64,000 nucleotides of DNA from Aggregatilinea lenta (GTDB taxonomy: Bacteria; Chloroflexota; Anaerolineae; Aggregatilineales; Aggregatilineaceae), in NCBI RefSeq assembly GCF_003569045.1, contig NZ_BFCB01000002.1, positions 1,841,506-1,905,505 of the forward strand, given 5' to 3'. The notes under the pieces are model-generated. The model searched no databases, had not been told where the DNA came from, and saw nothing but the letters and a program-made list of their open reading frames with translations. Below are positions 22,287-37,932 of this stretch, one piece after another; position 1 is the first letter of the stretch, and each line of letters begins with the position of its first letter. The translations under genes were made by a program, and so were the position numbers.

Positions 22287-22979
22287 ATGTTGTACCCGAC
22301 CGATTTGTTATGTCTCCCTGCGCCGAAGACGAGCGTTTCGACGAGTGAATCCCCGGCTGATCCCCAGGCCGTGCGCCTCGCGCAGCTGGAGCGCGAGCTG
22401 GCCGAAACGAAGCAGAGCCTGATCCAGGCGCGCGACGTGATCCGGAGCCAGCAGCGCAAGATCCAGCGCCTGCTGCCCGCCACGCCGCCCCCGCCGGCGC
22501 GCGAAAGCGACCGGGTGCGCTTCGTCACCCTGCGCCCCACCGAGCCGCTGCAACGGCTGTCCGGCCAGCAGCAGATCCACGACCTGCTGGCCGCCGGCTG
22601 GCAGATTCACTCCATGACCGCCCTGCCCGGCGACCCGCCGGCGGTCACCGTGCTGCTCACCCATCCCGACGCGCGGCCTGCGCCCCAAACAATCGCACGC
22701 CGCATCGTGCGCCCGCGCACAGCCAGCCCACGCCCCACGACGGCTCTCGCCGGCAAATCAGCGCCGATCGTCGTCGACGCGCACGACGAGACGCTCACCT
22801 ACGCCGAGGCGCTGCGTGCGCCACGTGGTGCGTTCACCGACGCCGAGCTGGCCGAGATCGCCGACCGCGAAGTGCACACCGCCGCCCGCCGCGCTTACGA
22901 GCGCGCCGGCGACCCCACCCTCTCCGAAACCCTGACCCGTCTCAACACCCGGAGGTCCTCCGATGCAGCCCGGCAGTAA
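22287..22979 (+). CDS. Hypothetical coiled-coil protein, 230 aa
   Basis: Residues 25-62 form a coiled coil (VRLAQLERELAETKQSL, IQARDVIRSQQRKIQRL). A small alpha/beta segment follows (RVRFVTLRPTEPLQRLSG, DLLAAGWQIHSMTALPG, PPAVTVLLTHP) that resembles the short domain used by phage proteins to handle 'ensure long-row' style queries, but I do not assign a family. The C-terminal third is Arg/Ala-rich and helical. GAGAGGAG precedes the ATG at 22287. Its end overlaps the next start by 17 bases. Confidence 0.55.
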   Translation: MLYPTDLLCLPAPKTSVSTSESPADPQAVRLAQLERELAETKQSLIQARDVIRSQQRKIQRLLPATPPPPARESDRVRFVTLRPTEPLQRLSGQQQIHDLLAAGWQIHSMTALPGDPPAVTVLLTHPDARPAPQTIARRIVRPRTASPRPTTALAGKSAPIVVDAHDETLTYAEALRAPRGAFTDAELAEIADREVHTAARRAYERAGDPTLSETLTRLNTRRSSDAARQ

Positions 22980-23565
22980 CGTGAACGACACACCCGATTA
23001 TTCCGCCCAGCTCGCCACCGTCGAGCTGCAGGTCGGCGCCCTGGCCGATACCGACCAGGTCGTCGAGGAGCTGGCCGGCGCGCTCGACTACCTGTACGAG
23101 ACCGGCGCGGATACTGCCGCGCTGCAGGTCGTCAGCGACGACGCTACGCGCCTGCTGGAAGCCAACCAGCAGCTCGACCAGGCGCTCAAGACCGTGGCCG
23201 AGGTGGCCCGCACCATCCAGCAGCAGCGCGACGCCACCCGCCGCGCCCTAACCGACCTGAAGGCCGCTATCGAGGATGCCGACACCGCCGTGCCAGAGAT
23301 CTCAGACCTGTACGACGCGCTGTCGGAGGTGGCGCAGGAGGACGCCGAGACCTACCTGATGGAGATCCTGTGGGACGTCGTGGTGGACAGCATTACCGCG
23401 AACACCGCCTTGACCTACTCCGAGGCGGTCGAGCTGACCGACCTGCTGACCGGCGGGCTGATCGACCCGGAGCATCCCGCCTGGCAGGACCTGCGCGACT
23501 GGATTTCACGCTGCGTCATGGTGGTAGAAGACGGCATCCGCCCTGAGGCAGAGGCCGAGTACTGA
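22963..23565 (+). CDS. Hypothetical acidic helical protein, 200 aa
   Basis: A strongly acidic, helical protein with a long predicted coiled coil (about residues 20-115: VVEELAGALDYLYETGADT, LLEANQQLDQALKTVAEVA). Asp/Glu-rich, with no Cys motif. Its start lies inside the previous gene with GGAGGTC just ahead, so the pair is coupled. It has the size and composition of a phage structural or DNA-mimic-like acidic protein, but that is speculation. No family is recognised. Confidence 0.55.
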   Translation: MQPGSNVNDTPDYSAQLATVELQVGALADTDQVVEELAGALDYLYETGADTAALQVVSDDATRLLEANQQLDQALKTVAEVARTIQQQRDATRRALTDLKAAIEDADTAVPEISDLYDALSEVAQEDAETYLMEILWDVVVDSITANTALTYSEAVELTDLLTGGLIDPEHPAWQDLRDWISRCVMVVEDGIRPEAEAEY

Positions 23566-23652: not shown

Positions 23653-24390
23653 ATGTTCAAAAACGAAGCGATTACGATCTGCGCGGGGCGTTGGGATGCG
23701 GGTGCGTTCCACCGCGCCCTGGACGTGGCGCGTTGCCTGCACGACGCGAGCCTATGGGATGGCGTGAGCAGCCTGGCGCTGTGCGATCCCTACGCGCTGC
23801 ACGACCGGCTGTTCGGCGTCCGGCACGAGCCGATCGAGGCGCTGATCCCCGGCGTCGATTACGTCATCCGCCCGGCGAAGAAACCGCGCGATCTGGACGA
23901 TCTGGTGCTGCCCGGCGGCGCCGTCGTCGCTGCAGCGTGCTCCATCCCCCACGTCAGCGGCGACCCCGATCGCCCGGCTATCCCGGCCTCGACGCTCGGC
24001 GTGGTCGTCGACACGCTCGCCTGCAAGGGCAGCTACGTAGTCGAGTTCTGCGGGATTGGGACTGTAGCAGTTTGGGAGAAAGATCTGGCCGTGCTGGATG
24101 CGGGCGCGGTCGAGACTCTGCCGCGGATGGATGGCAGCCGGCTCCTGCAGCTGTTTGTCGCGCAGCAGATGGTCATCCGCTCGCAGCGCGCGCAGCTGAT
24201 GCAGCTCCAGCGCGAGATAGCTGAGGTATGCGACGCGCACGCACAGATCCAGCAGGAGCTGACCGAGCAGGTCGACTACGAGGCAGCGCGGGCCGACGGC
24301 CTACAGGAACGGCTGGACGGGCTGGTTGCGGAGTTGATGGAGGAAGGCCGCGCGCCAGTACGACCGGCATCGCTCAGCCAGCGCGGCTAA
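23653..24390 (+). CDS. Hypothetical protein with DUF4926-like segment
   Basis: A 245-residue protein. I take the ATG at 23653 because GGAG lies 10 bases before it; ATGs at 23575 and 23638 are also in frame. Residues 117-152 (VVVDTLACKGSYVVEF, then GTVAVWEKDLAVL) look like the small DUF4926 beta-barrel, which is often found in mobile regions. Residues 160-230 form a coiled coil (QQMVIRSQRAQLMQLQREI and following). The last gene of the early-type operon; a classical terminator follows at 24419-24452. Confidence 0.55.
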   Translation: MFKNEAITICAGRWDAGAFHRALDVARCLHDASLWDGVSSLALCDPYALHDRLFGVRHEPIEALIPGVDYVIRPAKKPRDLDDLVLPGGAVVAAACSIPHVSGDPDRPAIPASTLGVVVDTLACKGSYVVEFCGIGTVAVWEKDLAVLDAGAVETLPRMDGSRLLQLFVAQQMVIRSQRAQLMQLQREIAEVCDAHAQIQQELTEQVDYEAARADGLQERLDGLVAELMEEGRAPVRPASLSQRG

Positions 24391-24418
24391 GGAAACGACG
24401 GTACCACGAGCAGCTTAG

Positions 24419-24452
24419 TGAGAGCGTGCGTGTCCACGCTCTCATGCTTTTT
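24419..24452 (+). terminator. Intrinsic terminator of early-type operon
   Basis: A perfect 10-bp stem (24419-24428 and 24435-24444), loop CGTGTC, then TTTTT at 24448-24452, 28 bases after the last gene's stop. Confidence 0.85.
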
Positions 24453-24736
24453 CCCGCCTATCATCTGCACATTTGAGACAAAATCATGAGAATGGCGCAG
24501 TAGATTTTACTGATGCTCTACCAAGCAAACGGTCCCACAAATCAACTCGTTATTTGATTACAAGTTTTTATTTCTTTTAAATCGTGGCTTAGTAGCCTTT
24601 AAATCTAGAAATGTAGTATGATAAACTATCAGCAAAAGTCACAGGAAACAAATCGATACAGGTGGTTCACACCCAAGGTAAATCCGTTTGGCACTCCGAA
24701 ACTAGGCGGATCCCTAGTTCATTACTACAGGGGAAA
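24453..24736. other. AT-rich boundary before CHAT cargo
   Basis: 284 AT-rich bases between the terminator and the first gene of the CHAT system. No gene is credible. A TATGAT box near 24617-24622 may be a -10 element for the cargo, without a clear -35. GC content drops sharply at this point and stays low to about 29.8 kb. Confidence 0.3.
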
Positions 24737-27406
24737 ATGCACTTGTCTCTGCAAAAGAAAGTACGTGACTTGTTTTCCCAACCAGAATTTTACTTCACCC
24801 GGAAAGGATACATTTTGGGCGAAGTTGTTGGGGTTGAAATAACCTTAGCACAGATTCGACGGGTTGGAGTTGTTGCGTATCTAGTTTGGCTAATGTTTGC
24901 CACCTCAAATCCATTATGGGTGAGCAAGCTTTCCCTAGTAGCATTTACAGGATTGCTTATTATCGTTCAAATTGTGTTTGGTTATTTGGAAAAAAACCAT
25001 GATCGTTATCAACTGCAGCCGTTTCGCATATTACGCTTCCACTACTACCTCGCAGTTGCGACTTTCCTCCTTGTGCTTGGACGTGGCGCTGGTGAGTTTC
25101 TCTTCTTATATCTACCTTACTTGACATTTGCTGGAATTTACTTTGGACTCGGATGGAGCATTGTAGGTACGTTCGAAGCCACAAGCGCCGTTTACTTAGT
25201 ATTGAAATACTTGGATAATCATGGCATTCTTGCAGCTGATCACAACATTATCACGTTAGCAACAACAGGCATGCTATCAGCAGGGATAATATCAACACTA
25301 TGTTGGTATTATTACATACCGAAGATTCAGCATGAAGTGCGAGCCCTGAGAACAGCCCTCGGCTTAGCCAGTCTCGATCCGACAAAAAACTTAACCGACT
25401 CAACGGTCTATGGAGCAATGTTTGATAGGCTGAGCAAGTTTATCAACATTGACTCAGCCCTGATTGTCGCAGATATAGATGGAGATGGAGTTTTTGAAGT
25501 TGTAGGAGATCACGGATACGCAGAACATCCAGAGTTTGAGTTTGTTATTGGGGGCAGAAAAAGCAAAGAAGGATTAACAGGAACCGTACTAACTAGTAAA
25601 AAAACCTTGCTGTTATCGGATGTTGCTCAATCAAAAACAAAACCGAAGTATCAAAATATTGCCAAAAATCGTCGTCTTGAATCATATCTAGGTGTTCCAC
25701 TTTTACTTGAAGATAACCTTGTTGGAGCGATTGTTCTAACGTCTGACAAAAAGGGGGCTATTGGCCAAGAAGAGAAACTGCTTCTCGAAGCAATTAGCCC
25801 CTGGCTAGCTGTGCTTGTTCAGTCCGCAATCGCACATCGTCATAGTCGCTTGGCCAACAATTACCTGCAGGAAATCTTTGACTTGTCGGACGAGGGGATT
25901 ATTGTTAGTGATTTACATGGACATATTATTCTCTACAATGTGCATGCAACGAATATCCTCGAATTTCCACAAGGCACCATGTCTAGAATTACCCTAGGTG
26001 ATATTTTTGTTGATCCTGAAAAAGAGTTGAGCAAACTTGTAACTGATACAGTTAAAAGCGCGAATATATTCAACAATCACCTTGCAGACATGCAAAATTC
26101 CCGTAGTGAGCGGCGACAGGTAACTCTTAGCAGCTCGAGACTTAAGGGCCCCGATGGTCGCCCGCAGGTAGTACTCTTCTTCAAAGCCGTCCGTGATCTT
26201 CCTCTCGGTGACAAGAGAATTCAAGCATTGATCGAAGTAAGCAAGCTTGCATCTACTCGCCCATTTGACGATATGGACGATCAAGCACACCGCATTCTTC
26301 AATTCTTGTCCATTGGTCTGGAGGATGCCCACTTTGCCGTCTTGCGGCTCAAGCAGGATCAGATTCTTCAGATTAGGAGCTGGAGCGCAACCCTTGATGG
26401 CGAAGGTTTCGAACATCTTGATCTAGGTCTGGGAGAAGGCCTCACGGGAATTTCACTTGGCTCGGGAGAGCCAATTCAGGTCCTTGATGTACAGCAAGAT
26501 TATCATTTTCGGTTTCCCGATTTTGCGAAGAAATACAATCTGCGGGCTGCACTAATCGTTCCACTGAACTACGGCGACCACCCGCTTGGCACCCTAGCAG
26601 TGTATAGATATCAGCCAAAGTTGTTTAGCGAAGCAGAACATGACTTCATCCTACTATTCTCAGAACTGGCATCAATTGTAATTGCCACTAGTAATCTTGT
26701 TGCACCAGGAGTAAAGAAACATAGTCAGTCTCTACTAACTGACTATACCAACGCACTTACTAGAGAAATATGGTCACCACTCTCAACAATACGCGGATGG
26801 ACCCAGTTGCTCCAAGCGGCAGTTGAACCAAAGCTAAAGGATAAAGTTGCCCAGATCGGGGAAGCAACTGAAGAGATAAACAGGGTTCTGTTAGAAAGCC
26901 TTGAATTCCGTAAAGAACTGCCCATCAGAAAGAGGTCTGGTATTGAACTCGCAGAACTCATAATTGATGCAATTGAACGAACAAAAAAGGAAGTGACGGA
27001 AATTCCAGATATTTACGATTTCCAGGTCGATATCCCCAATTTAAGAGTAGAAGCAGATCCAGTACTATTCGGCTCTGCGATTTTCAATATTGTGTCGAAT
27101 GCCGTCGAATTTCAGCCTGATGGCGGCACCATATCGATAAAAAGCACCATGCCGAAAGCAAATAAGGTCAATCTGATCATATCTGATACCGGACCTGGCA
27201 TATCTACCAGACATTTTCCTGAGATAGACAGAATTTTCCTGCCCAACTTCTCGACTAAATCCCATGCGGAACAACAAGGCTATAGTCGAAGCCTCGCATA
27301 CGCGGAACGCATTGTAGAGGCGCATGGATGGAGCATTTTAGCCCGAAACTTGCTTGACCAAGGGGCAGAATTCTGTATATATGGAATTGACACGGCGGTA
27401 GATTGA
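24737..27406 (+). CDS. Membrane GAF-PAS-GAF sensor, degenerate histidine kinase
   Basis: An 889-residue sensor. Residues 30-210 hold about six membrane helices. Then come GAF-like 1 (about 245-390, with GVPLLLEDNLVGAIVL), a PAS-like region (about 395-510, SDEGIIVSDLHGHIILYN), GAF-like 2 (about 530-650) and a kinase-like core. At the HisKA position the sequence reads LTREIWSPLSTIRGW: the usual His is Arg676. The HATPase keeps the N box (FNIVSNAVEF) and G1 (SDTGPGIS), but G2 reads QGYSRSLAYAE instead of GTGLGLAI. Autophosphorylation on the normal His is thus unlikely. The gene ends nine bases before the CHAT gene, in one operon. The start at 24737 has AGGGG upstream. Confidence 0.85.
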   Translation: MHLSLQKKVRDLFSQPEFYFTRKGYILGEVVGVEITLAQIRRVGVVAYLVWLMFATSNPLWVSKLSLVAFTGLLIIVQIVFGYLEKNHDRYQLQPFRILRFHYYLAVATFLLVLGRGAGEFLFLYLPYLTFAGIYFGLGWSIVGTFEATSAVYLVLKYLDNHGILAADHNIITLATTGMLSAGIISTLCWYYYIPKIQHEVRALRTALGLASLDPTKNLTDSTVYGAMFDRLSKFINIDSALIVADIDGDGVFEVVGDHGYAEHPEFEFVIGGRKSKEGLTGTVLTSKKTLLLSDVAQSKTKPKYQNIAKNRRLESYLGVPLLLEDNLVGAIVLTSDKKGAIGQEEKLLLEAISPWLAVLVQSAIAHRHSRLANNYLQEIFDLSDEGIIVSDLHGHIILYNVHATNILEFPQGTMSRITLGDIFVDPEKELSKLVTDTVKSANIFNNHLADMQNSRSERRQVTLSSSRLKGPDGRPQVVLFFKAVRDLPLGDKRIQALIEVSKLASTRPFDDMDDQAHRILQFLSIGLEDAHFAVLRLKQDQILQIRSWSATLDGEGFEHLDLGLGEGLTGISLGSGEPIQVLDVQQDYHFRFPDFAKKYNLRAALIVPLNYGDHPLGTLAVYRYQPKLFSEAEHDFILLFSELASIVIATSNLVAPGVKKHSQSLLTDYTNALTREIWSPLSTIRGWTQLLQAAVEPKLKDKVAQIGEATEEINRVLLESLEFRKELPIRKRSGIELAELIIDAIERTKKEVTEIPDIYDFQVDIPNLRVEADPVLFGSAIFNIVSNAVEFQPDGGTISIKSTMPKANKVNLIISDTGPGISTRHFPEIDRIFLPNFSTKSHAEQQGYSRSLAYAERIVEAHGWSILARNLLDQGAEFCIYGIDTAVD

Positions 27407-27414
27407 GGCTAGGA

Positions 27415-29478
27415 ATGGAATTTTCAGAATCGCAATTACCAACAGCATTAGCACTGATTGATGCAGGGCCAGGAGACTACTTTGGATACCTTTCTGAAGT
27501 ACTCTCCGGTATGGTGCAACTCGATCTTGCTCGTTCCGCATACGAGTTCTTCGTCAGACATGATCCCAGCGTCTATTCACTATACATTATTGATCAGACA
27601 GTAAGAGGTGAACCATTTTTCCCTCTAGATGATGTTGGATTAAATGTAGTCGAAACTCTTATTGACGAAGCTGATGAGACTCCGATTTTATTCTTGTCGA
27701 CGGCAGATATTGACGAAAGCAATCATATTCTAGAAAGACACTCAAACTGCCACTCGGTGCCACGATTTGTACGCCACGAATATGAGATTCCAACTCTCGT
27801 CGAACTGCTTATTCGGACGGCATCGACGAAGCCTAAGTCACAGGTGAGACTTTTTATCACTTATTGGCTCGATCCGCCAGCAGAACACCTTGACGGAGAG
27901 AGCCGTCTCGATGCGGTACTTAATATGGCTTTTTGTCGAACTCATATAGTGACTGTTGACTGCCGTTACAAGTTCAATCGCGTAGACTTTCCTGGTGACA
28001 TTGATACTTTACGAGCCGAAATAAAAGCCAGTGGTTTTAGGACAGGGGTAATTGAAAACAGCAGCATTTCTATTCCTAACAATTCCGAGATCCAGACTCT
28101 GCGAATAGGACTGGAAGATATACAACCTAAAACGGAACCTCATAGAAAAGTGTCTATCCACTTTTTCTCGGATACCGGATTTTTGAATGATCTTCGCTTT
28201 GGCCTGACGGCTAGGGGGGAAAACCTGGGCTCCCGAACTATTCTGCTTAGCCAACGAGAAGTTCCTCAAGTTCATGATGAGAATGGACCTCGTCATGTGC
28301 TGGAGTTAAAATGGCACAAGACTACAGAGGGCGCACCTTACTTAGAAGTAGCAGCGACTTTTCGATATAACGGCAAAGTACATGTTAAACCCTTGGGAGA
28401 AACAAAGTTGACCCTTGGTGACTATACCGACATTCGGGAAAGACTTGAGAATGCCTTGAAAAGGATAGAACTGAAGGCGGCAACTGGAGAAATCTTCAGC
28501 ACAGTACCCGAAACGGTCGAGAAATCGAAAGAGTTGTTTGAAGCAGGGCAAGCTGCTTTCTACAGGATCTTTAGCGCAACGGACAGGGGTTTGACAAGGA
28601 AATTACAAGATTTTTTTGAAAGATCACAAAGCGTTTTCGGTCAGAAGCCAGAAGTACGTGTTGACACTGATAGTCTTCATCTCATTCCTTTCGAACTTCT
28701 ATACACTGCACCTCTTCAGCCTTCAAACGAGTTTCAGCTTAATAGACTCTGGGCAATGGGAGCAGTAGTTAAGCAGTTGCTCCCTAACCAAGACTACGGC
28801 GAAACTCCAGTTCTAAGCTCCTCTAGCCGTATAAATTTTGCATTTATTCGTAATACAAAGATTGAAGCTCCACTGCGCTACGAACTACCTCTGCTTGAAG
28901 CAGTTTCAAATCACATCGATCTATATCGTTGGGAAAAGGATAAACATGATCCATTTGATTTGGCTGGATTTTTAAGAGCGCCATATCAGATACTGCAAAT
29001 TACCGGTCACGGTACCCGTCCACCAGGAGAAAGTATTAACCTTGGCGGAGCATATCTTACGCCGGAATGGTTTTTAGATAACAATATTATGCTTGGCGAT
29101 AGGCCGCTCGTTATTTTGAACGCTTGTGAGGGAGTAGCAATTGATCCAGAATACACAAAATCTTTCCTTACAGCACTCTTTAAAGCAGGAGCGCAAGGAA
29201 TTCTGGGCCCCCACACCAGGGTGGGCACCTATTTTGCGTCGCGATTTGTAACAAGTTTCCTGCGCTATTTTCTTTCCGGCATGCCGGCAAACGATGCGCT
29301 ACAGCGAACACGGCAAGAATGCTTCCTAAATACAGGACATCTTACTGGGTTACTGTATACTTACTATGGTCATCCATCTTTGTCCGTGGAAAACTATATT
29401 CCTATGGGAAACGATCTTAATTTATGTAGTAAGTGCCTTATATTAGGGTGTGTTTCCGAAAAGTCAGAGACAATTTAG
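27415..29478 (+). CDS. Receiver-like domain plus CHAT protease
   Basis: A 687-residue protein. The first 140 residues have the outline of a response-regulator receiver: LYIIDQTV with Asp60 at the phosphoacceptor position, PILFLSTAD with Ser/Thr at 95-96, and VPRFVRHEYEIPTLVELL at the end, where the usual Lys is not obvious. The middle 250 residues are beta-rich and unassigned. The C-terminus is a CHAT caspase-like protease: His532 in QITGHG and Cys571 in ILNACEG form the dyad, and LLYTYYGHPSL closes the domain. CHAT proteases in conflict systems cut host or partner proteins when triggered. It lies between the sensor and a small Pepco-like gene, eight bases after the sensor. Confidence 0.85.
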   Translation: MEFSESQLPTALALIDAGPGDYFGYLSEVLSGMVQLDLARSAYEFFVRHDPSVYSLYIIDQTVRGEPFFPLDDVGLNVVETLIDEADETPILFLSTADIDESNHILERHSNCHSVPRFVRHEYEIPTLVELLIRTASTKPKSQVRLFITYWLDPPAEHLDGESRLDAVLNMAFCRTHIVTVDCRYKFNRVDFPGDIDTLRAEIKASGFRTGVIENSSISIPNNSEIQTLRIGLEDIQPKTEPHRKVSIHFFSDTGFLNDLRFGLTARGENLGSRTILLSQREVPQVHDENGPRHVLELKWHKTTEGAPYLEVAATFRYNGKVHVKPLGETKLTLGDYTDIRERLENALKRIELKAATGEIFSTVPETVEKSKELFEAGQAAFYRIFSATDRGLTRKLQDFFERSQSVFGQKPEVRVDTDSLHLIPFELLYTAPLQPSNEFQLNRLWAMGAVVKQLLPNQDYGETPVLSSSSRINFAFIRNTKIEAPLRYELPLLEAVSNHIDLYRWEKDKHDPFDLAGFLRAPYQILQITGHGTRPPGESINLGGAYLTPEWFLDNNIMLGDRPLVILNACEGVAIDPEYTKSFLTALFKAGAQGILGPHTRVGTYFASRFVTSFLRYFLSGMPANDALQRTRQECFLNTGHLTGLLYTYYGHPSLSVENYIPMGNDLNLCSKCLILGCVSEKSETI

Positions 29479-29505
29479 TCTTTCCAGCAACCAAGGAGAA
29501 TTTAT

Positions 29506-29808
29506 ATGTCCCAATCACCAACAATTCCAGTTTTTGCTGAATCCGTGCCCGACCATGAATACTTAGGCGATGAGCATCAACGAAAAATACACGATGTATC
29601 TGTTGCCACGCTCACTAGTAACCTAAACGATATTCTCAACCAGCTTGAAAAGATTCTTCCTCAACCAGAACGCCAGTACAATAAGTTTAAAATTGAAGAA
29701 ATAGAAATTAAGCTCGAGGTGAGCGCAGAAGGAAAGATCGGAATTCTGGGAACAGGAATCCAGGCTGGAGCGAATGCAGGCTTAAGCATCACACTGAAAC
29801 GAGCTTAG
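29506..29808 (+). CDS. Small Pepco/Trypco-like protein
   Basis: A 100-residue protein. Residues 35-100 match my memory of the small domains that accompany peptidases in bacterial conflict systems (Pepco, and the related Trypco2): SVATLTSNLNDILNQLEKIL, then FKIEEIEIKLEVSAEGKIGI, then LGTGIQAGANAGLSITLKR with the characteristic GTG..AGANAGL strand. In those systems the domain is fused or linked to a trypsin-, caspase- or CHAT-like protease and is thought to be a substrate or activator. Here it follows the CHAT gene by 27 bases, with AAGGAG upstream. The name is inferred from pattern only. Confidence 0.65.
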   Translation: MSQSPTIPVFAESVPDHEYLGDEHQRKIHDVSVATLTSNLNDILNQLEKILPQPERQYNKFKIEEIEIKLEVSAEGKIGILGTGIQAGANAGLSITLKRA

Positions 29809-29882
29809 TCACTAACTGATCTTCACGAGCAGGCGTGCTCGACGGGCCCACCTACCTGTTCATGGGAAATGACGCCGTGCCG

Positions 29883-30020
29883 GTAACTGCGTAGAATATC
29901 GTGATGCTTCTGCTTTGGCTCTTTTTGATCAGAGTGCTCGCGTTTTTAGAAGCGCTTAGGGATCAATAAGGACTATGAAGTTTGCCGTTTTGACGGCCAC
30001 CACGGTATTCTACGACTTAC
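29883..30020. repeat. 138-bp stretch bounded by imperfect inverted repeats
   Basis: The ends 29883-29903 and 30001-30020 are inverted copies of about 20 bases; the core CGTAGAATAYCGTG matches at 13 of 14 positions. The interior has no gene. It looks like a MITE or a small mobile remnant, or a long cruciform. It lies between the AT-rich CHAT block and the GC-rich mutasome. Confidence 0.45.
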
Positions 30021-30210
30021 CGCTGCTCCTAACGACTCACTCTCCCGATTGCAGCTACCATCCCCGACGATAATCCCGCGCAACATACAGCGAACATGCG
30101 ATACGTTTCGATTCTCTACATTCGCAAGTTAATGTTCACCATTAGCGGCGATTTTTACGCGAAGGCCCTAATTCTCTAACCCCATTCCAACCCTGCTCCA
30201 ACATGTTCTA

Positions 30211-30258
30211 TTGTTTTGCCCACCCGACTCATCCTATAATGCATAGCACATGCGTTCG
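30211..30258 (+). promoter_or_regulatory. Promoter and possible SOS operator of mutasome
   Basis: TTGTTT (30211-30216) and a perfect TATAAT (30235-30240) with 18 bases between. Immediately after the -10, AGCACATGCGTTCG (30245-30258) fits 12 of 14 positions of a Gram-positive-type LexA box (CGAAC-N4-GTTCG): right half exact, left half 3 of 5. A palindrome AACATGTT sits just before the -35. The region 29809-30210 upstream contains no gene. Confidence 0.5.
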
Positions 30259-30278
30259 ATTGGGACTGGGGTACTATC

Positions 30279-31013
30279 ATGCGCGCCGACCGCCAGCAAC
30301 GACTGCAGCAGGTCATGGCAGATCTCCAGCACCAGTGGGGGCCGAATGCACTCTACCAACTCGTCCGCACCGAGGCCCCGCTGGGACTTTCAACCGGGTT
30401 TCCGGATCTCGACAAGCTCACCGGCAGCGGCGGCATTGCGCGCGGGCGGATCACCGAGATCCGCGGCGTGCCGACGTCCGGCATGCTGACGCTCGCGCTT
30501 GGAACGGTCGTCAGCGCGCAGGCCGGTGGCGACTACGCAGCTTACCTGGACCTGAGCCGGACGTTCAATCCAGTCTTCGCCGAGCAGCGTGGCGTCGCCC
30601 TGGACCGCCTCATCGTCGTTTGGCCGCCGACGCCCGGCCAGGCGCTGGACATCGCCTACGGCCTGACGGCGCAGCGCGTCGTCGGCCTGCTCGTCGTCGA
30701 CGCCGTCAACGACCTGCTCGACGCGAAGCTGTCGCTCTCGGCCAGCCTGCGCCAGATCACGAGCGCGTTGGCCGCTTCACCGACGGCCCTGTTGTTCCTC
30801 ACCACGCTCTATCCGGATCGACCGGAGCCGGTCGACCAGGCGCTCGCCTACTACGCCTCGCTGCGGCTGGAGCTGCGGCGCACCGGCTGGAAGCGTCGCC
30901 GCGGCCACATCGTCGGCTACACCACCTGCGCGACCGTGCAGAAGAACAAGCTGGCATCCCCCGGCCAACACACGTCGCTCCACTTCACCCTGTCCGACGA
31001 GCCACGCCCATGA
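30279..31013 (+). CDS. imuA: ImuA-like RecA-fold protein
   Basis: A 244-residue RecA-like protein of the ImuA/SulA-like group that serves the ImuB-DnaE2 mutasome. The RecA fold shows as LGLSTGFPDLDKLTG, GGIARGRITEIRG, YLDLSRTFNP and GLLVVDAVNDLL. The P-loop position reads RGVPTSGMLTLA (about residues 62-73), lacking the GKT of RecA, so ATP binding is doubtful; many ImuA proteins are similarly degenerate. GGGG lies about eight bases before the ATG at 30279. Its stop overlaps the imuB start (ATGA), the first of a chain of overlapping genes. Confidence 0.8.
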   Translation: MRADRQQRLQQVMADLQHQWGPNALYQLVRTEAPLGLSTGFPDLDKLTGSGGIARGRITEIRGVPTSGMLTLALGTVVSAQAGGDYAAYLDLSRTFNPVFAEQRGVALDRLIVVWPPTPGQALDIAYGLTAQRVVGLLVVDAVNDLLDAKLSLSASLRQITSALAASPTALLFLTTLYPDRPEPVDQALAYYASLRLELRRTGWKRRRGHIVGYTTCATVQKNKLASPGQHTSLHFTLSDEPRP

Positions 31014-32194
31014 TCGCCTACGTCCGCCTTCCGTACTTCGCCATCTCGCTTGCTTACCGCGACGAGCCGAGCATGACCGGACCGCTCGTGCTCGGCGGCT
31101 ACGCGTGGCAGGCAGGGCAGGTCTACGCCATGTCTCAGACGCCCGAACAGGCCGGGGTGCGCGCCGGCATGGCCCTGCGCCAGGCGCAGGCACTCTGCCC
31201 GGATGCGCGATTCCTGCCCGCCGACGACGCGCGCTGCCGGCAGCTGTTCGAGCAGATCGCGGACGCGTTCGCCACGTACACGCCGTATACCGAGCCGGAG
31301 CCGGCGCTGCAGCATGCCGGCTGTTACCTGGATCTGCGCGCCGGCGATGCGCGGCAGATGGCTCGCATGCTCCATTGCCAGATCGAGGTGCAATTCGGCG
31401 TACACCTCCGGATCGGGCTGGCCGCGACTAAGCACGCGGCGAAGATAGCGGCTGCATCCGCCACGCACGACCCGATCCACCTCATTCCACCCGGCCAGGA
31501 AGCCGCCGCGCTCGCGCCGCTGCCGCTCGCGACCCTGCCCCTGGATGCCGAGACCGTGCGCCAGCTGCACCTGCTGGGCATCTATACCGTCGGACAATTC
31601 GCCGCACTCAAAGGCGGGGCCGTGCTCGGTCGCTTCGGCAAGACGGTCTACACCGTGCACCGGCTGGCGCTGGGCCAGGACCCTCGCCCCGTCGCTCCCT
31701 ACCACTACAAGCAATCCGAGCAGGCCGGCTGCAGCTTCGACGATCCGCTCGACAACCGCCAGGTCGTCGAGACAACACTCCACCAACTGAGCCAGACCCT
31801 CGCACAGCGGCTGGACCCCCGCCACCTGATCGCACGGTCGCTCGCGCTCGACGTCCACTTCGAAGATCGCACGCGCGGCCACGCGGCGACGACGCTGCGC
31901 GAGCCGAGCGCCGATCCCCGCCGTCTGGGCGCCGCGCTCGCGGACCTCTTCAGCCGGATCGCGGTCGAGAGCCGGATCGACGAGCTGCACGTCACGGCGA
32001 CCGACCTGGTGCCGCCGGTTGCCCGGCAGCTGTCGCTGTTCGACAGCGGCGAGACGCAGCGCACGCGCCTGCAAGAAGTCCTGGGGCACCTCGCGGTGCG
32101 GCACGGCGCGAGCTTCTACCGCTCCACGGTCGTCGAGGCCTTTCCTTACCTGCCGGAGCGCCGCGTGCGCTGGTCGGCCCTGGAGGCCGTATGA
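31010..32194 (+). CDS. imuB: ImuB, catalytically dead Y-family polymerase
   Basis: A 394-residue Y-family polymerase homologue. The N-terminal palm (MIAYVRLPYFAISLAYR), fingers, thumb with the DVHF region (TVGQFAALKGGAVLGRFG helix-hairpin-helix) and a little-finger domain are present. The catalytic Asp of motif I is not there (AYVRLPYF) and the DE of motif III is replaced (HAGCYLDL). This loss is the hallmark of ImuB, which acts as a beta-clamp adaptor in translesion synthesis, not as a polymerase. A QLSLF motif near residue 343 fits a clamp-binding site. It overlaps imuA and the following small gene by four bases each. Confidence 0.88.
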   Translation: MIAYVRLPYFAISLAYRDEPSMTGPLVLGGYAWQAGQVYAMSQTPEQAGVRAGMALRQAQALCPDARFLPADDARCRQLFEQIADAFATYTPYTEPEPALQHAGCYLDLRAGDARQMARMLHCQIEVQFGVHLRIGLAATKHAAKIAAASATHDPIHLIPPGQEAAALAPLPLATLPLDAETVRQLHLLGIYTVGQFAALKGGAVLGRFGKTVYTVHRLALGQDPRPVAPYHYKQSEQAGCSFDDPLDNRQVVETTLHQLSQTLAQRLDPRHLIARSLALDVHFEDRTRGHAATTLREPSADPRRLGAALADLFSRIAVESRIDELHVTATDLVPPVARQLSLFDSGETQRTRLQEVLGHLAVRHGASFYRSTVVEAFPYLPERRVRWSALEAV

Positions 32195-32445
32195 ACCGCG
32201 TGTGGCAGGAGGGCTTGCCGATCGCCGTCGCGACCGACGAGTGGGGCCAGCCGCAACGTTTCACCTGGCTCGCACGCCCGCACCCGGTCGTCGAGATCGT
32301 CAGCCGCTGGCGGGTCGACTACGAGTGGTGGCAGCAGCGTATCTGGCGTGACTACTTCAAGGTCTGCACCGGCACCGGCCTGCTGGTCGTGCTGTACGAG
32401 GACCTGATCCAAACCGAGTGGTTCCTCCACCGGCTGTACGACTGA
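32191..32445 (+). CDS. Small DUF6504-like mutasome-linked protein
   Basis: An 84-residue protein lying between imuB and dnaE2 with overlaps on both sides. The pattern (PQRFTWLARPHPVVEIVSRWRVDYEWWQ, then DYFKV, then LLVVLYEDL, then FLHRLYD) matches the small DUF6504-type proteins that often accompany imuB/dnaE2 cassettes. Aromatic-rich, soluble. Function unknown; its fixed position suggests a structural or regulatory partner of the mutasome. Confidence 0.7.
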   Translation: MNRVWQEGLPIAVATDEWGQPQRFTWLARPHPVVEIVSRWRVDYEWWQQRIWRDYFKVCTGTGLLVVLYEDLIQTEWFLHRLYD

Positions 32446-35400
32446 TGGGCGCCTACGTCGAACTCCACTGCCACAGCAACTTCAGCCTGCTCGACGGCGC
32501 CTCGCACCCGGAAGAGCTGGTCGCCCGCGCGGCTGTGCTCGGCATGGACGCTCTGGCGCTCACCGACCACGACGCCGTGTATGGGGCAGTGCGTTTCGTC
32601 GAGGCCTGCCGCCGGCAGGGCATCCAGCCGATCCTCGGCGCGGAGGTCACGCTCACCGGCGGTCACCACCTGACCCTGCTGGTCGAGAACGAGACCGGCT
32701 GGCACAACCTGTGCGAGATCCTGACTTTCGCCCGGCACAATGCGCCGAAGGGTGAAGCGGTGCTGCCGATCGATCGGCTCGCCTCGCGTACGTCCGGCCT
32801 GATCGCCCTGTCCGGCTGCCGGCACGGTGAAATCCCCGCCGCCCTGCTGCGCGGGGACCGGAAGGCTGCGCTCCGTGCCGCGGTGTGTTATCGCGAGCTG
32901 TTCGGCCCGGCGGGGTTCTGGATCGAGCTGCAGCATCACCTGCTGCCGGACGATCCACGCCTCGTCGACGAGCTGGCAACCCTGGCGCGACACCTGGGGC
33001 TGGGTATCGTCGCCACCAACGACGTGCACTACGCCGAGCAGGACGGCCACCGGCTGCAGGACGTGCTGACCTGTATTCGCCACAACACGGCGCTGGACGA
33101 CGCGGCGCAGCTCGTCCGACCGAACTCGGAGTTCTACCTCAAGCCAGCCGGCGATATGGCGCGCCTGTTTGCCGCGTATCCCCAGGCGCTCGCCAACACC
33201 CGGCTGATCGCAGATCGCTGCGTCTTCGAGCTGCGCTACGGCTTGCAGGATCTACCCACTTTCGACGTACCCGACGGCATGACGGCGCAGGCCTTCCTGC
33301 AGCAGCGCTGCACCGCGGCGCTGCCGTCCCATTACGGCACGCCCTCGCGTGAGGTGCTCGACCGGCTGGCGCTGGAGCTGGGCATCATCGAGCGGGCCTC
33401 GATGGCGAACTACTTCCTCATCGTGTGGGACCTGGTGCGCTTCGCCCGCGAGCAGGGTATCCGCTGCCAGGGGCGCGGCTCGGCGGCCAACTCTATCGTG
33501 GCGTATCTGCTCGACGTCACGCCCATCGAGCCGCTGTCCCAGCGCCTGGTCTTCGAGCGTTTCCTCTCCGACGAGCGACGGCTCCTGCCGGACATCGACG
33601 TCGACTTCGACGCCGCGCGGCGCGAGGAGGTGATCCAGTACCTCTACCGGCGCTACGGCCACGCGCACACGGCGATGGCCTGCACGTTCGTCACCTACCG
33701 CACCCGCAGCGCGATCCGCGACGTGGGCAAAGCACTCGGTTTTCCGCTCGACCTGCTCGACCACGTGGCGAAGACGACCGATGCGCGGTCCGCCGACGCC
33801 CTGGCCGAGCAGTACGGCGACGTCGGTCAGGCGCTACCCTGGCAGCAGCTGCTCGACCTGACGGCCCGGATTCGCGGCTTTCCGCGCCACCTGGGTATCC
33901 ACAACGGCGGCATGGTGATCACCGGCTCGCCGCTGGCCCGGCGCGTGCCGACCGAGCCGGCCACCATGCCCGACCGCTCCGTGATCCAGTGGGACAAAGA
34001 CGGCCTGGAGACGGTTGGGCTGGTGAAGATCGACGTGCTGGGGCTGCGCATGCTGTCGCTCATCGCGGAGGCGGTCGAGATCGTGCGCGAGACGACCGGG
34101 CAGGTGCCGGCGCTGGAGCGGCTGATCTACGACGATCCGGCGGTGTACGCCCAGGTCACCGACGCCGATACCGTCGGCGTGTTCCAGGTCGAGTCGCGCG
34201 CCCAGGTCCAGGTGCTGCCCCGTCTGCAGCCCGCGACGTTCGACGACCTGATCGTCTCCATCTCGCTCATCCGCCCCGGCCCGCTCCAGGGCAACATGGT
34301 GCATCCCTACCTGCGGCGTCGATTCGGGGAAGAGCCGGTGACTTATCCTCATCCCAGCCTCGAACCGGCACTGGCGGAGACGCTCGGCGTGATCCTGTTC
34401 CAGGAACAGGTGCTCAAGGTCGCGCACGACCTCGCCGGGCTGACACCGGGCCAGGGCGAGCTGCTGCGCCGGGCACTGGGCAGCAAATTCTCGACCGCCG
34501 GCATCGAGGCGCTGCGCGACGTTTTCCTGCGCGGCGCGCACACGCGGGGTGTACCGGCAGCGGTGGCGGAGGAGGTCTTCGCCAGGCTGCAGGCCTTCGG
34601 CAGCTACTCCTTCCCGAAGAGCCACGCGGCGGCGTTCGCCGTGCTGGTCTACCAGTCCGCCTGGCTGAAGCATTACCATCCGCTGGCCTTCTACGTCGGC
34701 CTGCTGAACAACCAGCCGATGGGTTTCTGGTCGCCGGAAGTGGTCGTCAACGACGCCAAACGGCACGACATCGCGATTCTGCCGGTGGACGTGACTCTCA
34801 GCCGCGCCCGGTGCACCGTCGAGGGTGCTGCCATTCGTCTGGGCTTCAACTTCGTGTCAGGCATTGGTGAGGTGCGGGGGGAAGAGATAGAGGCGGCGCG
34901 AGGCGCCGGGCCGTTCCGGCATCTGGGCGACTTCTGCCGCCGCACCCAGCTGCCGCGCCGGGCGGTCGAGAACCTGATCCGCGTCGGCGCGATGGATGCC
35001 TGGGATATCCCCCGGCGGCAGCTCCTGTGGGATCTCGGCAAGCTGCAGTACCGCGCGAACGAGCTGGACCTGGACTATCCCGACGATGGCGTCGAACTGG
35101 CGCCGCTGAGCGATACCGCCATGCTGCTGGAGGAGTACGAGGTGCTGGGCCTCTCCACCGGTGCGCACGTGGTGTCGCTCTTCCGCGAGCAGCTGAGGCA
35201 GCGTGGCACTCTGACGAGTCGAGATCTGGAAGGCTGCTCTGAGGGGGCGGTGGTCGAGGTGGCGGGCCAGCTCACGATGCATCAGGCGCCGCCCACGGCG
35301 AAGGGCTTTCACTTCCTGACGCTGGAGGACGAGTGGGGCATGATGAACGTGATTGTGAAACCTGACGTGTATCCGGTGTATCGGGAGGTCATTCGATCCG

Positions 35401-35486
35401 AGCCAATTTTGGTCGTGAAGGGGATTGTGCAGCGACGAGGGCGGGTAATCAATGTAGTGGCTAAAGCAATCTACAATGTGAGCTAA
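32445..35486 (+). CDS. dnaE2: DnaE2, error-prone DNA polymerase III alpha
   Basis: A 1013-residue C-family polymerase. PHP domain at the N-terminus (AYVELHCHSNFSLLDGAS, DALALTDHDAVYGA). The palm carries the catalytic acidic residues in RLLPDIDVDFDAARRE (about 381-395). Fingers, a helix-hairpin-helix and an OB-fold tail follow. At about 1010 residues it is shorter than replicative DnaE1 (about 1150), as is typical for DnaE2. It sits directly after the DUF6504-like gene (the ATG overlaps the previous stop by one base). It performs mutagenic lesion bypass with ImuA/ImuB. GC-rich, unlike the blocks on either side. Confidence 0.92.
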   Translation: MGAYVELHCHSNFSLLDGASHPEELVARAAVLGMDALALTDHDAVYGAVRFVEACRRQGIQPILGAEVTLTGGHHLTLLVENETGWHNLCEILTFARHNAPKGEAVLPIDRLASRTSGLIALSGCRHGEIPAALLRGDRKAALRAAVCYRELFGPAGFWIELQHHLLPDDPRLVDELATLARHLGLGIVATNDVHYAEQDGHRLQDVLTCIRHNTALDDAAQLVRPNSEFYLKPAGDMARLFAAYPQALANTRLIADRCVFELRYGLQDLPTFDVPDGMTAQAFLQQRCTAALPSHYGTPSREVLDRLALELGIIERASMANYFLIVWDLVRFAREQGIRCQGRGSAANSIVAYLLDVTPIEPLSQRLVFERFLSDERRLLPDIDVDFDAARREEVIQYLYRRYGHAHTAMACTFVTYRTRSAIRDVGKALGFPLDLLDHVAKTTDARSADALAEQYGDVGQALPWQQLLDLTARIRGFPRHLGIHNGGMVITGSPLARRVPTEPATMPDRSVIQWDKDGLETVGLVKIDVLGLRMLSLIAEAVEIVRETTGQVPALERLIYDDPAVYAQVTDADTVGVFQVESRAQVQVLPRLQPATFDDLIVSISLIRPGPLQGNMVHPYLRRRFGEEPVTYPHPSLEPALAETLGVILFQEQVLKVAHDLAGLTPGQGELLRRALGSKFSTAGIEALRDVFLRGAHTRGVPAAVAEEVFARLQAFGSYSFPKSHAAAFAVLVYQSAWLKHYHPLAFYVGLLNNQPMGFWSPEVVVNDAKRHDIAILPVDVTLSRARCTVEGAAIRLGFNFVSGIGEVRGEEIEAARGAGPFRHLGDFCRRTQLPRRAVENLIRVGAMDAWDIPRRQLLWDLGKLQYRANELDLDYPDDGVELAPLSDTAMLLEEYEVLGLSTGAHVVSLFREQLRQRGTLTSRDLEGCSEGAVVEVAGQLTMHQAPPTAKGFHFLTLEDEWGMMNVIVKPDVYPVYREVIRSEPILVVKGIVQRRGRVINVVAKAIYNVS

Positions 35487-35871: not shown

Positions 35872-37893
35872 ATGCCGGGTCTTGCCGAGAGCATCTTGGC
35901 CCTTGTTGAACCCATCGTAGGTGACGTTGATTCACCTGTCCATCGGCGACACCTTGCTTCCGCGTTTGACAAGTATTACGCTGCAATAGAAACATCATTG
36001 GCTCGGTATAGAGATCATCTCGGAAAGAAAACCGTTGAGATTGGGGCTTTGAGAAGGCGCTATATTCTCGAAACCGCAATCTTGCACGTGCTTACTCAAC
36101 TCTTGCTTCTTAGGACAAACAATGAAGGGTCAACTACTTTCTTGTGGCCAGTCAACGAGGAAGAAGGTTTCTTCACGTGGTACCAATTACCATCTAGATT
36201 GCAGGAGGATATCGGCGAATCACTGGCAAAACTCAAAGCGGCACATAATCTTGAACTCACCCTGTCATATACCCTGGATCAAGTCTTTCGCACAACTGGG
36301 ATCGACTATTTGGGAGAATACTATACGCCACTTCCCATTGCCCGACACATTCTTCAGCTATCTGAACTAAAGTCGAGTCATGTTTTAGACTCGCGTAGGA
36401 TCGTTGATCCTTCATGCGGTGGGGGCGTTCTGTTACTACTTGCAGCCCAACAGATAATAGCTGATCTTGATGCCTCAAAATCAGACCCACAAGCCATTAT
36501 CGACATGCTCTCAGCTAGTATCCACGGCTTCGATATTCAACCCTTTGCCGTAACGTTAACGAGAAGTCTCTTAACCTCGGTATGCACTCCGCTGCTACAC
36601 ACGGGCGCCACTTTCCTCGAAAGTCCATTTCCCCGAGTGCAAGTTCAAGATCCACTTGCGACGCGAGACGGTTCTTGGACTCACAGTCAATTTGACTGGA
36701 TTCTTGGGAATCCACCATTTCAACCTGTTAAGAAAGCTGGCCTGGATTATGCTGATGCTTATGCTGACATCCTTTATGGGCATCCCAATTTATATCAACT
36801 TTTTCTTTGGTGGGCCGTCTTGGCTGCTCGCCCAGATGGCAGAATCGCGTTCCTTCTTCCTCAGTCATTACTGGCAGGAAGCTACTTCCAAAGATTACGG
36901 CAAGAGCTTTTTGAAAGGGTGCAGTTACTTGCAGTCACCCGACTGATTGAACGCAAAGGTATTGTCGGGAATGCGGATCAACAGATGATGGCGATTGCCC
37001 TGAAAGCCAATGGGCATGGGGCAACTGAACAGAGTCGAGATGTTGCGATTCGAGTAACCTGGAATGGCGATGACATCGATCAAACTCCTGTGCACTTCGT
37101 GGCATCTGAGCGCGTTACGCAGTCGAAAAACAAGCAAATAATCTGGATAGTCTCTGAGAAAAACGATGATTACGAGTTACTAGAAGCGCTTGAGCGTTCC
37201 AGCAATCTGCTTGCTCAGATGAAACACCTCTTCTTGCTCAACAATGGAGAATATGTCTGGAATCAGCATAAGCATCTATTGAGCAGAGAGTATGTGGAGA
37301 GCTCATATCCTCTTGTATCCTCGGCGTGCGTCGGACGTTACTCAATCAAGTTCCCATACAGCGGCTCGCATCCTACTCGCACACGTTCTTTTTCAAGGCT
37401 TGATCCCAGTGTGTCGAATTACCTTCATTCTGGGCCAATGATTTTGGTCCAGCGCACTACGCGGCGCAAAGTGGGAAGACGGCTAGTCGCAGGAATGTTG
37501 GGTCAGCAGTTCTATACGGAATATGGAAAGTACTTCGTGGAAAATCATGTGAACTACGTTACTCTCGCTTCAGACACGTCAGTGGATTTTCTCTACGGCC
37601 TGTTGGCATGGTTCAATAGCGATCTTATGAATTTCGTATTTCAACTAGAAAATGGGACACCACACGTTTCCATCACTGATCTGGGATTGCTCCCTGTTCC
37701 CCTTGATGTAGTTGCGCACCTTGTCGAGCCGGCAAAATCCATATGCTCTAGCACAGAAGAAGAAAAAGGATCACAAATAGCAGAGATAAATGAACTGTTG
37801 TTTAATCATTATCATCTATCACCTAACCAGCGAAAGAGAATACAGTTTGTACTTGACAGGGCCGAACGCAAACCTCGACAGGGTCATGCCTAG
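35872..37893 (+). CDS. N6-adenine DNA methylase-like protein
   Basis: A 673-residue Eco57I/TaqI-type methyltransferase-like protein. Motif X region GEYYTP (148-153), motif I DPSCGGG (179-185) and catalytic motif IV NPPF (280-283) are intact, so methylation of adenine is plausible. After the catalytic core, residues 420-640 look like a target-recognition region (GIVGNADQQMMAIA, SITDLGLLPVPL). No nuclease motif is seen in the chain, and no separate restriction endonuclease or specificity subunit gene lies nearby. It is first in a four-gene operon (with GHKL/kinase, receiver and HNH), and is AT-rich. Confidence 0.85.
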   Translation: MPGLAESILALVEPIVGDVDSPVHRRHLASAFDKYYAAIETSLARYRDHLGKKTVEIGALRRRYILETAILHVLTQLLLLRTNNEGSTTFLWPVNEEEGFFTWYQLPSRLQEDIGESLAKLKAAHNLELTLSYTLDQVFRTTGIDYLGEYYTPLPIARHILQLSELKSSHVLDSRRIVDPSCGGGVLLLLAAQQIIADLDASKSDPQAIIDMLSASIHGFDIQPFAVTLTRSLLTSVCTPLLHTGATFLESPFPRVQVQDPLATRDGSWTHSQFDWILGNPPFQPVKKAGLDYADAYADILYGHPNLYQLFLWWAVLAARPDGRIAFLLPQSLLAGSYFQRLRQELFERVQLLAVTRLIERKGIVGNADQQMMAIALKANGHGATEQSRDVAIRVTWNGDDIDQTPVHFVASERVTQSKNKQIIWIVSEKNDDYELLEALERSSNLLAQMKHLFLLNNGEYVWNQHKHLLSREYVESSYPLVSSACVGRYSIKFPYSGSHPTRTRSFSRLDPSVSNYLHSGPMILVQRTTRRKVGRRLVAGMLGQQFYTEYGKYFVENHVNYVTLASDTSVDFLYGLLAWFNSDLMNFVFQLENGTPHVSITDLGLLPVPLDVVAHLVEPAKSICSSTEEEKGSQIAEINELLFNHYHLSPNQRKRIQFVLDRAERKPRQGHA

Positions 37894-37932
37894 CACTTAG
37901 ACTGTGTTCGTTAGGGTTGTCGGAGCAATTCA

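What the first reader, a model, noticed from the sequence alone, without database searches (positions are those of the whole stretch)
24737..29808. Degenerate sensor kinase + receiver-like/CHAT protease + Pepco-like protein: candidate new conflict system
Three tightly spaced AT-rich genes (gaps of 8 and 27 bases) build a signal chain: a membrane GAF-PAS-GAF sensor with a kinase-like core, then a protein with a receiver-like N-terminus (Asp60) and a CHAT protease dyad (His532, Cys571), then a small Pepco/Trypco-like protein. CHAT and Pepco/Trypco are recurrent parts of bacterial conflict systems, but this combination, with a two-component-like input and a receiver fused to CHAT, matches no named system I know. 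It rides in a prophage, as many phage-borne defences do. The simplest model is that the sensor triggers the CHAT protease, which cuts the small protein or a host target.
Basis: partly seen in the sequence, partly recalled or inferred. Interest (0 to 1): 0.85.

Follow-up and report, generated by a model that had tools for sequence, protein, structure and literature searches.

The report
Prophage-borne sensor-driven caspase-like protease cassette
A probable prophage in a bacterium carries three foreign-looking genes that look like a membrane sensor, a caspase-like cutting enzyme and a small partner protein, probably a self-killing or defence switch whose signalling parts have lost their usual phosphate chemistry.

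Summary
The three genes are real and at the stated coordinates. Gene 1 is a membrane GAF sensor with a histidine-kinase ATPase domain; its phosphate-accepting His is replaced by Arg, so it looks like a pseudokinase. Gene 2 ends in a CHAT protease with an intact His-Cys dyad; its N-terminus may be a degenerate receiver, on weak evidence. Gene 3 is a solid Pepco protein. The cassette has GC3 0.38-0.40 against 0.86-0.89 in five high-GC genes of the window. Pepco sits beside a CHAT, clostripain or caspase gene in 12 of 15 loci examined; two of the other three are cut by contig ends. One further genome of the order (G470; 154 genomes searched, the window's own included) has the same parts as one operon, with receiver and CHAT as separate genes and better-kept kinase motifs. 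Sensor, receiver, CHAT and Pepco therefore look like a real but rare module. It works like a two-component defence system (Detocs-like logic) with a CHAT effector, but is not a member of any named system tested. The antiviral role, the signal and the cleavage target are inferred. Verdict: new variant of a known kind.

The parts
24737..27406 (+). Gene 1: membrane GAF sensor with pseudo-histidine-kinase core (889 aa); hydrophobic N-terminus, GAF, weak PAS, GAF, HisKA-like stretch with His replaced by Arg, HATPase_c
27415..29478 (+). Gene 2: possible receiver-like N-terminus, middle part without family match, C-terminal CHAT protease (687 aa; His532, Cys571)
27415..27834 (+). Possible degenerate receiver domain, residues 1-140 (Asp16, Asp60, Thr96 fit; second acid and Lys not kept, placed by eye)
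   Evidence: Weak. Against:
29104..29325 (+). CHAT core, residues 564-637 as matched by PF12770, containing Cys571
   Evidence: residues 564-637 of gene 2
29506..29808 (+). Gene 3: Pepco protein (100 aa), ribosome-binding-like AAGGAG before the start

Best explanation
The cassette is a mobile, probably prophage-carried conflict module in which a membrane-anchored GAF sensor with a pseudo-histidine-kinase core controls a caspase-fold (CHAT) protease. A signal (unknown; a GAF ligand, nucleotide state or membrane disturbance) changes the sensor. The sensor contacts the receiver-like N-terminus of gene 2 and relieves inhibition of the CHAT domain, in this copy probably by binding and shape change and not by phosphotransfer. 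The active CHAT protease cuts one or more cell or phage proteins and stops growth or kills the infected cell. Pepco is the small partner of the peptidase (adaptor, inhibitor or first substrate). Shown here: the parts, the dyad, the lost His, Pepco's link to CHAT, clostripain and caspase genes, and a second operon with the same parts. Inferred: that the N-terminus is a receiver, the direction of signalling, activation of the protease, its target, and the defence role.
For: CHAT and Pepco above Pfam cut-offs. CHAT dyad aligned with solved CHAT chains 8rot and 8d9h. Phosphoacceptor His replaced by Arg in 4 of 4 printed alignments with solved kinases. Second operon in G470: GAF-GAF-GAF kinase, receiver, CHAT, Pepco, with 8-base overlaps or a 52-base gap, and recombinase-like genes on both sides of the locus (by eye). 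The G470 receiver matches a receiver in G656 (31%, E 6.8e-6) which matches PF00072 at 1.7e-11. Pepco next to a CHAT, C11 or C14 gene in 12 of 15 loci. GC3 0.38-0.40 against 0.86-0.89. A second AT-rich block nearby carries a restriction-like set, so this stretch collects cargo.
Against: No defence assay, and PADLOC-DB gave 0 of 3. The full arrangement was seen in only one other genome, and no kinase ATPase domain of this kind lies beside Pepco in the other 13 loci. The receiver call on gene 2 is marginal: no Pfam match, no receiver among 4 PDB phmmer hits at E up to 5, BLASTP to G470's receiver E 0.73, hhalign score inside the shuffle range, pairwise Z 1.26 to G470's receiver and -0.47 to G656's. 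Structure models are poor (mean pLDDT 38). Loss of kinase and receiver residues could also mean decay.
Confidence: 0.43

Rival explanations
1. A true phospho-signalling system of the Detocs type: the sensor is phosphorylated at another residue, or another kinase supplies the phosphate, and Asp60 of gene 2 is still phosphorylated, which switches on the CHAT effector.
For: Asp60 and Thr96 are present. The G470 relative has His at the phosphoacceptor column and ATPase boxes that look kept (by eye). The own genome is rich in receivers (124 PF00072 matches at E up to 0.001). PMC12632262 (passages read) says substitutions at DD, T or K do not necessarily abolish phosphorylation.
Against: His to Arg in gene 1, a degenerate last ATP-lid segment in gene 1 (by eye), and loss of the second acid and the Lys in gene 2 (by eye).
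Confidence: 0.15
2. A prophage-serving switch, not host defence: the cassette excludes superinfecting phages or uses regulated proteolysis to control lysogeny or host functions.
For: It lies between a phage repressor-like match and tail, portal and terminase matches and beside a mutagenic DNA repair set.
Against: Its composition differs strongly from the five high-GC genes compared, the second operon in G470 lies between recombinase-like genes and not visibly in a phage (by eye), and no relative of genes 2 or 3 was found in viral contigs.
Confidence: 0.2
3. Neighbours by accident: a generic CHAT protein with an unrelated N-terminus, paired with Pepco, next to a decaying sensor kinase that no longer signals.
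For: Receiver evidence in gene 2 is marginal, the kinase is degenerate, and 13 of 15 Pepco loci have no such kinase in the DNA held (L034, L056, L063 and L064 are short on one side).
Against: Genes 1 to 3 are 8 and 27 bases apart with matching composition, all three frames are open, and G470 has the same set as one operon.
Confidence: 0.17

Closest known systems
Detocs (defensive two-component system; glossary passage read in PMC11249213; component details recalled, original paper not held)
   Same: Sensor-kinase-like protein paired with a receiver-type protein that carries or drives a toxic effector, in a small operon.
   Different: Effector is a CHAT protease and not the ATP-cleaving PNP; no stand-alone receiver partner in the window; kinase His lost; Pepco is an added component.
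Craspase, type III-E CRISPR (TPR-CHAT; passages read in PMC9729208)
   Same: CHAT protease with His-Cys dyad switched on by shape change when a partner senses an invader. The CHAT profile built here matches solved CHAT chain 8d9h; that 8d9h is the Craspase protease is recalled.
   Different: No RNA-guided partner; no TPR match in gene 2; input comes from a membrane GAF sensor.
Peptidase-plus-Trypco/Pepco modules of bacterial conflict systems (Trypco named in PMC7159879, passages read; Pepco occurs 0 times there and is known here only as Pfam PF24393)
   Same: Small Pepco protein encoded next to a caspase, clostripain or CHAT gene.
   Different: Input is a sensor kinase and receiver; no MoxR, vWA, STAND or NACHT match among the three proteins.
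EACC1-caspase two-gene membrane system (System 4, PMC7159879, passages read)
   Same: A membrane protein proposed to sense and activate a caspase-fold peptidase.
   Different: The sensor there is a short single-helix protein; here it is an 889-residue GAF pseudokinase.
DivL-type pseudo-histidine kinases (chain 4q20 matched; biology recalled)
   Same: Histidine-kinase fold without the phosphoacceptor His.
   Different: DivL acts in the cell cycle (recalled); here the partner is a protease.

Membership tests
CHAT peptidases (PF12770) | Profile score above the curated cut-off | tested here: met
   33.5 bits against 24
CHAT peptidases (PF12770) | His-Cys catalytic dyad | tested here: met
   His532 and Cys571; Cys aligned; His and Cys both aligned with 8rot and 8d9h through the profile
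CHAT peptidases (PF12770) | Proteolytic activity | not testable with these tools
   Needs biochemistry
Pepco (PF24393) | Profile score above the curated cut-off | tested here: met
   68.9 bits against 27
Pepco (PF24393) | Encoded next to a peptidase (meaning of the name assumed, then tested here) | tested here: met
   12 of 15 loci; G793 has none; G856 and G318 are cut by contig ends
Sensor histidine kinase | HATPase_c domain | tested here: met
   48.7 bits against 26.4
Sensor histidine kinase | Phosphoacceptor His in the H-box | tested here: not met
   Arg at this position in 4 of 4 printed alignments; HisKA 16.1 bits against 26.9
Receiver domain (PF00072) | Profile match above cut-off | tested here: not met
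   No match at E up to 5 in whole or cut-out form
Receiver domain (PF00072) | Distant similarity to receivers | tested here: inconclusive
   6.8 bits to a profile of 30 own-genome receivers plus the G470 and G656 receivers, 4.6 bits without those two; 2,001 scrambled or reversed copies submitted, 1,459 reported, maximum 4.8 bits; 1 of 319 control segments reaches 6.8 bits. hhalign 19.8 against a maximum of 20.6 in 100 shuffles. No receiver in PDB phmmer
Receiver domain (PF00072) | Five active-site residues (DD, D, T, K; PMC12632262 passages) | tested here: not met
   Asp16, Asp60, Thr96 present; second acid is Ala17 and the Lys position looks like His121, placed by eye (sequence). A pseudo-receiver at best
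Detocs | Sensor kinase plus receiver-effector protein | tested here: inconclusive
   Kinase-like sensor present; receiver fusion only marginally supported
Detocs | Stand-alone receiver protein (recalled) | tested here: not met
   Only three genes in the block, none a lone receiver
Detocs | PNP effector (best-described type, PMC11249213) | tested here: not met
   Effector is CHAT
Any PADLOC-DB 2.0.0 system | Match to a listed defence protein | tested here: not met
   0 of 3 proteins at E up to 1
MoxR-vWA ternary systems (PMC7159879) | MoxR AAA ATPase and vWA genes in the cassette | tested here: not met
   None among the three proteins

The most novel reading that the evidence does not exclude
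A pseudo-two-component immune protease: a histidine-kinase-fold sensor without its His and a receiver-fold domain without its phospho-chemistry relay a signal by contact alone to a fused caspase-like CHAT protease, with Pepco as dedicated partner. The G470 operon preserves the phosphorylating, split-gene form from which it derives.
Probability: 0.28. Interest if true: 0.75.

Novelty: new variant of a known kind. Interest (0 to 1): 0.55.

Why it matters
Bacterial CHAT proteases are known to be triggered by RNA-guided complexes (PMC9729208, passages read). A route from a membrane sensor-kinase fold straight to such a protease would add a new kind of input. The window and G470 copies form a natural pair (degenerate and fused versus better kept and split), so the question of how pseudo-receivers are switched, which the abstract of PMC12632262 calls a mystery, becomes directly testable. 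The survey also shows Pepco beside three different peptidase types of the caspase fold, which makes its shared function worth solving.

Tried and rejected
Close relatives by pattern scan: gene 2 none in genome contigs or viral contigs; gene 1 none in genome contigs; gene 3 none in viral contigs; gene 3 none in phages by tblastn. In plasmids gene 2 matched 5 records, over the CHAT part only, gene 2's first 382 residues none, the G470 receiver none (viral contigs none). In 400 phylum genomes gene 2 matched in 24 including its own, the others over residues 359 onward only; in 154 order genomes in 5 including its own. A two-genome check showed CHAT proteins without Pepco or a sensor kinase beside them (G487, G489).

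Structure of gene 2, whole and residues 1-140: single-sequence models, mean pLDDT 38. The whole-protein fold search gave nothing usable. The 140-residue search had 337 matches at E up to 10 and none at E up to 0.001; of the 50 rows listed, 41 are response regulators or receivers by title or recalled identity, best E 0.043. I treat this as a hint only, because the model is poor and receivers are common in the PDB.

Receiver test by other routes, all against or unconvincing: PDB phmmer gave 4 hits at E up to 5, none a receiver; BLASTP against G470's receiver E 0.73; hhalign 19.8 with a shuffle maximum of 20.6; pairwise Z against 30 own-genome receivers mean 0.70 with 3 of 30 above 2, while one negative segment gave mean 0.65 with 6 of 30 above 2.

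Insertion boundaries: no exact direct or inverted repeat of 10 bases or more between 24381-24740 and 29801-30290. Widening the Pepco survey in the orders of G752 (20 genomes) and G586 (2 genomes) added no locus. The phage gene upstream of the trio has no relative in viral contigs. DnaE2-like relatives in 12 viral contigs are distant (25-33% identity) and I did not examine them further.

Papers: Detocs original not held. Nine searches showed, in the rows listed, no title or abstract start describing a CHAT protease under a sensor kinase or receiver; several searches held more papers than were listed. One paper (PMC5108060, one passage read) reports a CHAT-TPR gene close to a receiver-domain gene in T. 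ingrica.
Full report
WHAT IS THERE. The three frames exist at the stated coordinates with gaps of 8 and 27 bases. The block has GC 0.43-0.44 and GC3 0.38-0.40. Five high-GC genes compared (three repair genes at 30.3-35.5 kb, the gene at 22963-23565 and the tape-measure gene) have GC3 0.86-0.89. The block looks foreign to its surroundings.

GENE 1 (24737-27406). Pfam finds two GAF stretches and HATPase_c above cut-off; PAS and HisKA are below cut-off. A hydropathy scan marks segments near 65-83, 105-123 and 171-189. In phmmer of the kinase part against solved structures, 26 distinct sequences matched at E up to 0.001. The four printed alignments (3a0r, 9jfj ZraS, 7z8n, 3d36 sporulation kinase B) all place the Arg of 'ltREiwsPl' on the phosphoacceptor His. 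The N and G1 boxes look kept and the last lid segment looks degenerate (by eye, alignment). I call it a pseudo-histidine-kinase.

GENE 2 (27415-29478). The C-terminal CHAT domain scores 33.5 bits against a cut-off of 24. His532 and Cys571 sit in 'TGHG' and 'LNACEG'. Of 23 CHAT loci printed, 21 show the Cys motif in the CHAT region (in L005 and L006 the script caught another place). A five-sequence CHAT profile that includes gene 2 matches solved chains 8rot/8rw5 (E 2.2e-6) and 8d9h (E 3.6e-5), with His on His and Cys on Cys in both printed alignments. PMC9729208 (passages read) gives the dyad of its TPR-CHAT as H585 and C627, 42 residues apart; here the spacing is 39.

THE N-TERMINUS AS A RECEIVER is possible but not shown. 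Against it: no Pfam match at E up to 5; 4 PDB phmmer hits at E up to 5, none a receiver; BLASTP to G470's receiver E 0.73; hhalign 19.8 with a maximum of 20.6 in 100 shuffles; pairwise Z 1.26 to G470's receiver, -0.47 to G656's, 0.22 to the window's 40245 protein, and against 30 own-genome receivers no better than one of the nine negative segments. For it: a profile of the 30 receivers plus the G470 and G656 receivers gives 6.8 bits, and 4.6 bits without those two; none of the nine negatives exceeds 0.8 and 1.5 bits. Of 2,001 scrambled or reversed copies submitted, 1,459 were reported and none exceeds 4.8 bits; of 320 control segments two reach 6.8 bits, one being G470's own receiver, so 1 of 319. 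The match covers only residues 75-101. The low-confidence model orders its elements strand-helix-helix-strand-helix-strand-helix-strand-helix with Asp60 right after a strand at 57-59. By eye, Asp16, Asp60 and Thr96 fit DD, D and T, while Ala17 and His121 replace the second acid and the Lys. By the definition in PMC12632262 (passages read) it would be a pseudo-receiver.

GENE 3 (29506-29808). Pepco at 68.9 bits against a cut-off of 27. A four-sequence Pepco profile found no convincing solved relative (best E 0.36).

PEPCO KEEPS COMPANY WITH CASPASE-FOLD PEPTIDASES. (That CHAT, C11 and C14 share this fold, clan CD, is recalled.) Pepco is rare: 2 of 400 phylum genomes, 2 of 154 in the order, 13 of 396 in the class, the samples overlapping; 14 distinct genomes in all. 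With one Azospirillum plasmid (tblastn E 0.07; aligned) this makes 15 loci. The neighbour is CHAT in 4 (window, G470, G586, G752), clostripain C11 in 4 (G565, G593, G637, G654) and caspase C14 in 4 (G822, G846, the plasmid, and G645, the last judged by eye from the ORF). G793 has no peptidase beside it. In G856 and G318 the contig ends next to Pepco. These are not 15 independent events: the four C11 loci are one family, and the five loci of family f124 (G645, G793, G822, G846, G856) all lie next to a glutaminyl-tRNA-synthetase-like gene (by eye). Counted as settings, 7 of 8 have such a peptidase and the eighth (G318) is cut.

THE SECOND OPERON. Of the other 153 genomes in the order, G470 alone has Pepco. 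Its locus L042 carries, in one direction, a GAF-GAF-GAF sensor kinase (967 aa), a 271-aa receiver protein, a 399-aa CHAT protein and Pepco, with 8-base overlaps or a 52-base gap and GC 0.36-0.38. Recombinase-like genes lie on both sides, one about 0.2 kb beyond the kinase gene and one at the far end of the locus with other genes between (by eye). Pfam does not see its receiver either, but it matches a G656 protein at 31% identity, E 6.8e-6, which matches PF00072 at 1.7e-11 and sits just downstream of a GAF sensor kinase. The G470 kinase has His at the column where gene 1 has Arg (MAFFT alignment). Separate receiver and CHAT genes in one place and a fused gene in the other would be the classic sign that two parts work together, provided gene 2's N-terminus is a receiver. 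Similarity between the two cassettes is low (kinase best segment 27%, CHAT 23% over 103 residues, Pepco 20%), so they are old or independently assembled relatives. A kinase ATPase profile found no further such kinase among 481 ORFs of 14 loci other than G470's own; L034, L056, L063 and L064 are short on one side, and the plasmid's caspase protein has a weak HATPase match in Pfam (E 0.007).

SETTING. Tail, tape-measure, portal and small-terminase matches lie at 45.5-64 kb and a repressor-like match at 20.2 kb. RecA-like, Y-family and DNA polymerase III alpha-like genes (labels ImuA, ImuB, DnaE2 recalled) lie at 30.3-35.5 kb. A second AT-rich block at 35.9-41.5 kb has a methyltransferase, a protein with two GHKL ATPase domains, a weak receiver match and an HNH/PtuB-like nuclease. 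The trio is therefore probably prophage cargo; no prophage end was mapped.

HOW IT MOST LIKELY WORKS. Sensor change, contact with the receiver-like domain, release of the CHAT protease, cutting of a target, arrest or death of the cell, with Pepco as partner. Only the parts and their co-occurrence are shown; the steps are inferred.

WHAT IT IS CALLED. It works like Detocs in logic and like Craspase in effector chemistry. It is filed as neither: the PNP effector and the lone receiver of Detocs are absent, and no RNA-guided part is among the three genes. PADLOC-DB gave nothing for any of the three. Nine literature searches of the open library listed no such system; subscription papers are largely missing and some lists were capped, so this does not prove novelty.

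Noticed in passing
35872-41505: Second AT-rich block: type II-like methyltransferase, protein with two GHKL ATPase domains, weak receiver match (PF00072 E 0.0064; also above shuffles by hhalign) and HNH nuclease resembling PtuB. It looks like a restriction-type system that also borrows two-component folds.
   Followed up: partly
30279-35486: RecA-like, Y-family polymerase and DNA polymerase III alpha-like genes (recalled labels ImuA, ImuB, DnaE2) between the two AT-rich blocks of an apparent prophage; relatives of the last occur in 12 viral contigs.
   Followed up: partly
L035 8315-12898 (Azospirillum plasmid): Pepco is followed by a 1,527-residue protein combining caspase, iHD-CE and a weak HATPase match, suggesting another GHKL-linked peptidase system.
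   Followed up: partly
L059, L060, L061: In one family Pepco lies between a clostripain and a large CHAT protein, so two caspase-fold peptidases flank one Pepco.
   Followed up: partly
L034 119-415: 98-residue protein beside Pepco in G318 that by eye looks like a small adaptor-type domain; no Pfam match above cut-off; contig ends there.
   Followed up: no
L036 3200-9859 (Microvirga plasmid): Hypothetical protein with a CHAT-like match to gene 2, followed by a gene annotated as alpha/beta hydrolase, with a gene annotated as thiol-activated cytolysin upstream.
   Followed up: no
L043 and L044: CHAT proteins lie near a glycogen-branching-enzyme-like gene in two genomes with conserved gene order (by eye), so not all CHAT genes here are in mobile regions.
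   Followed up: no
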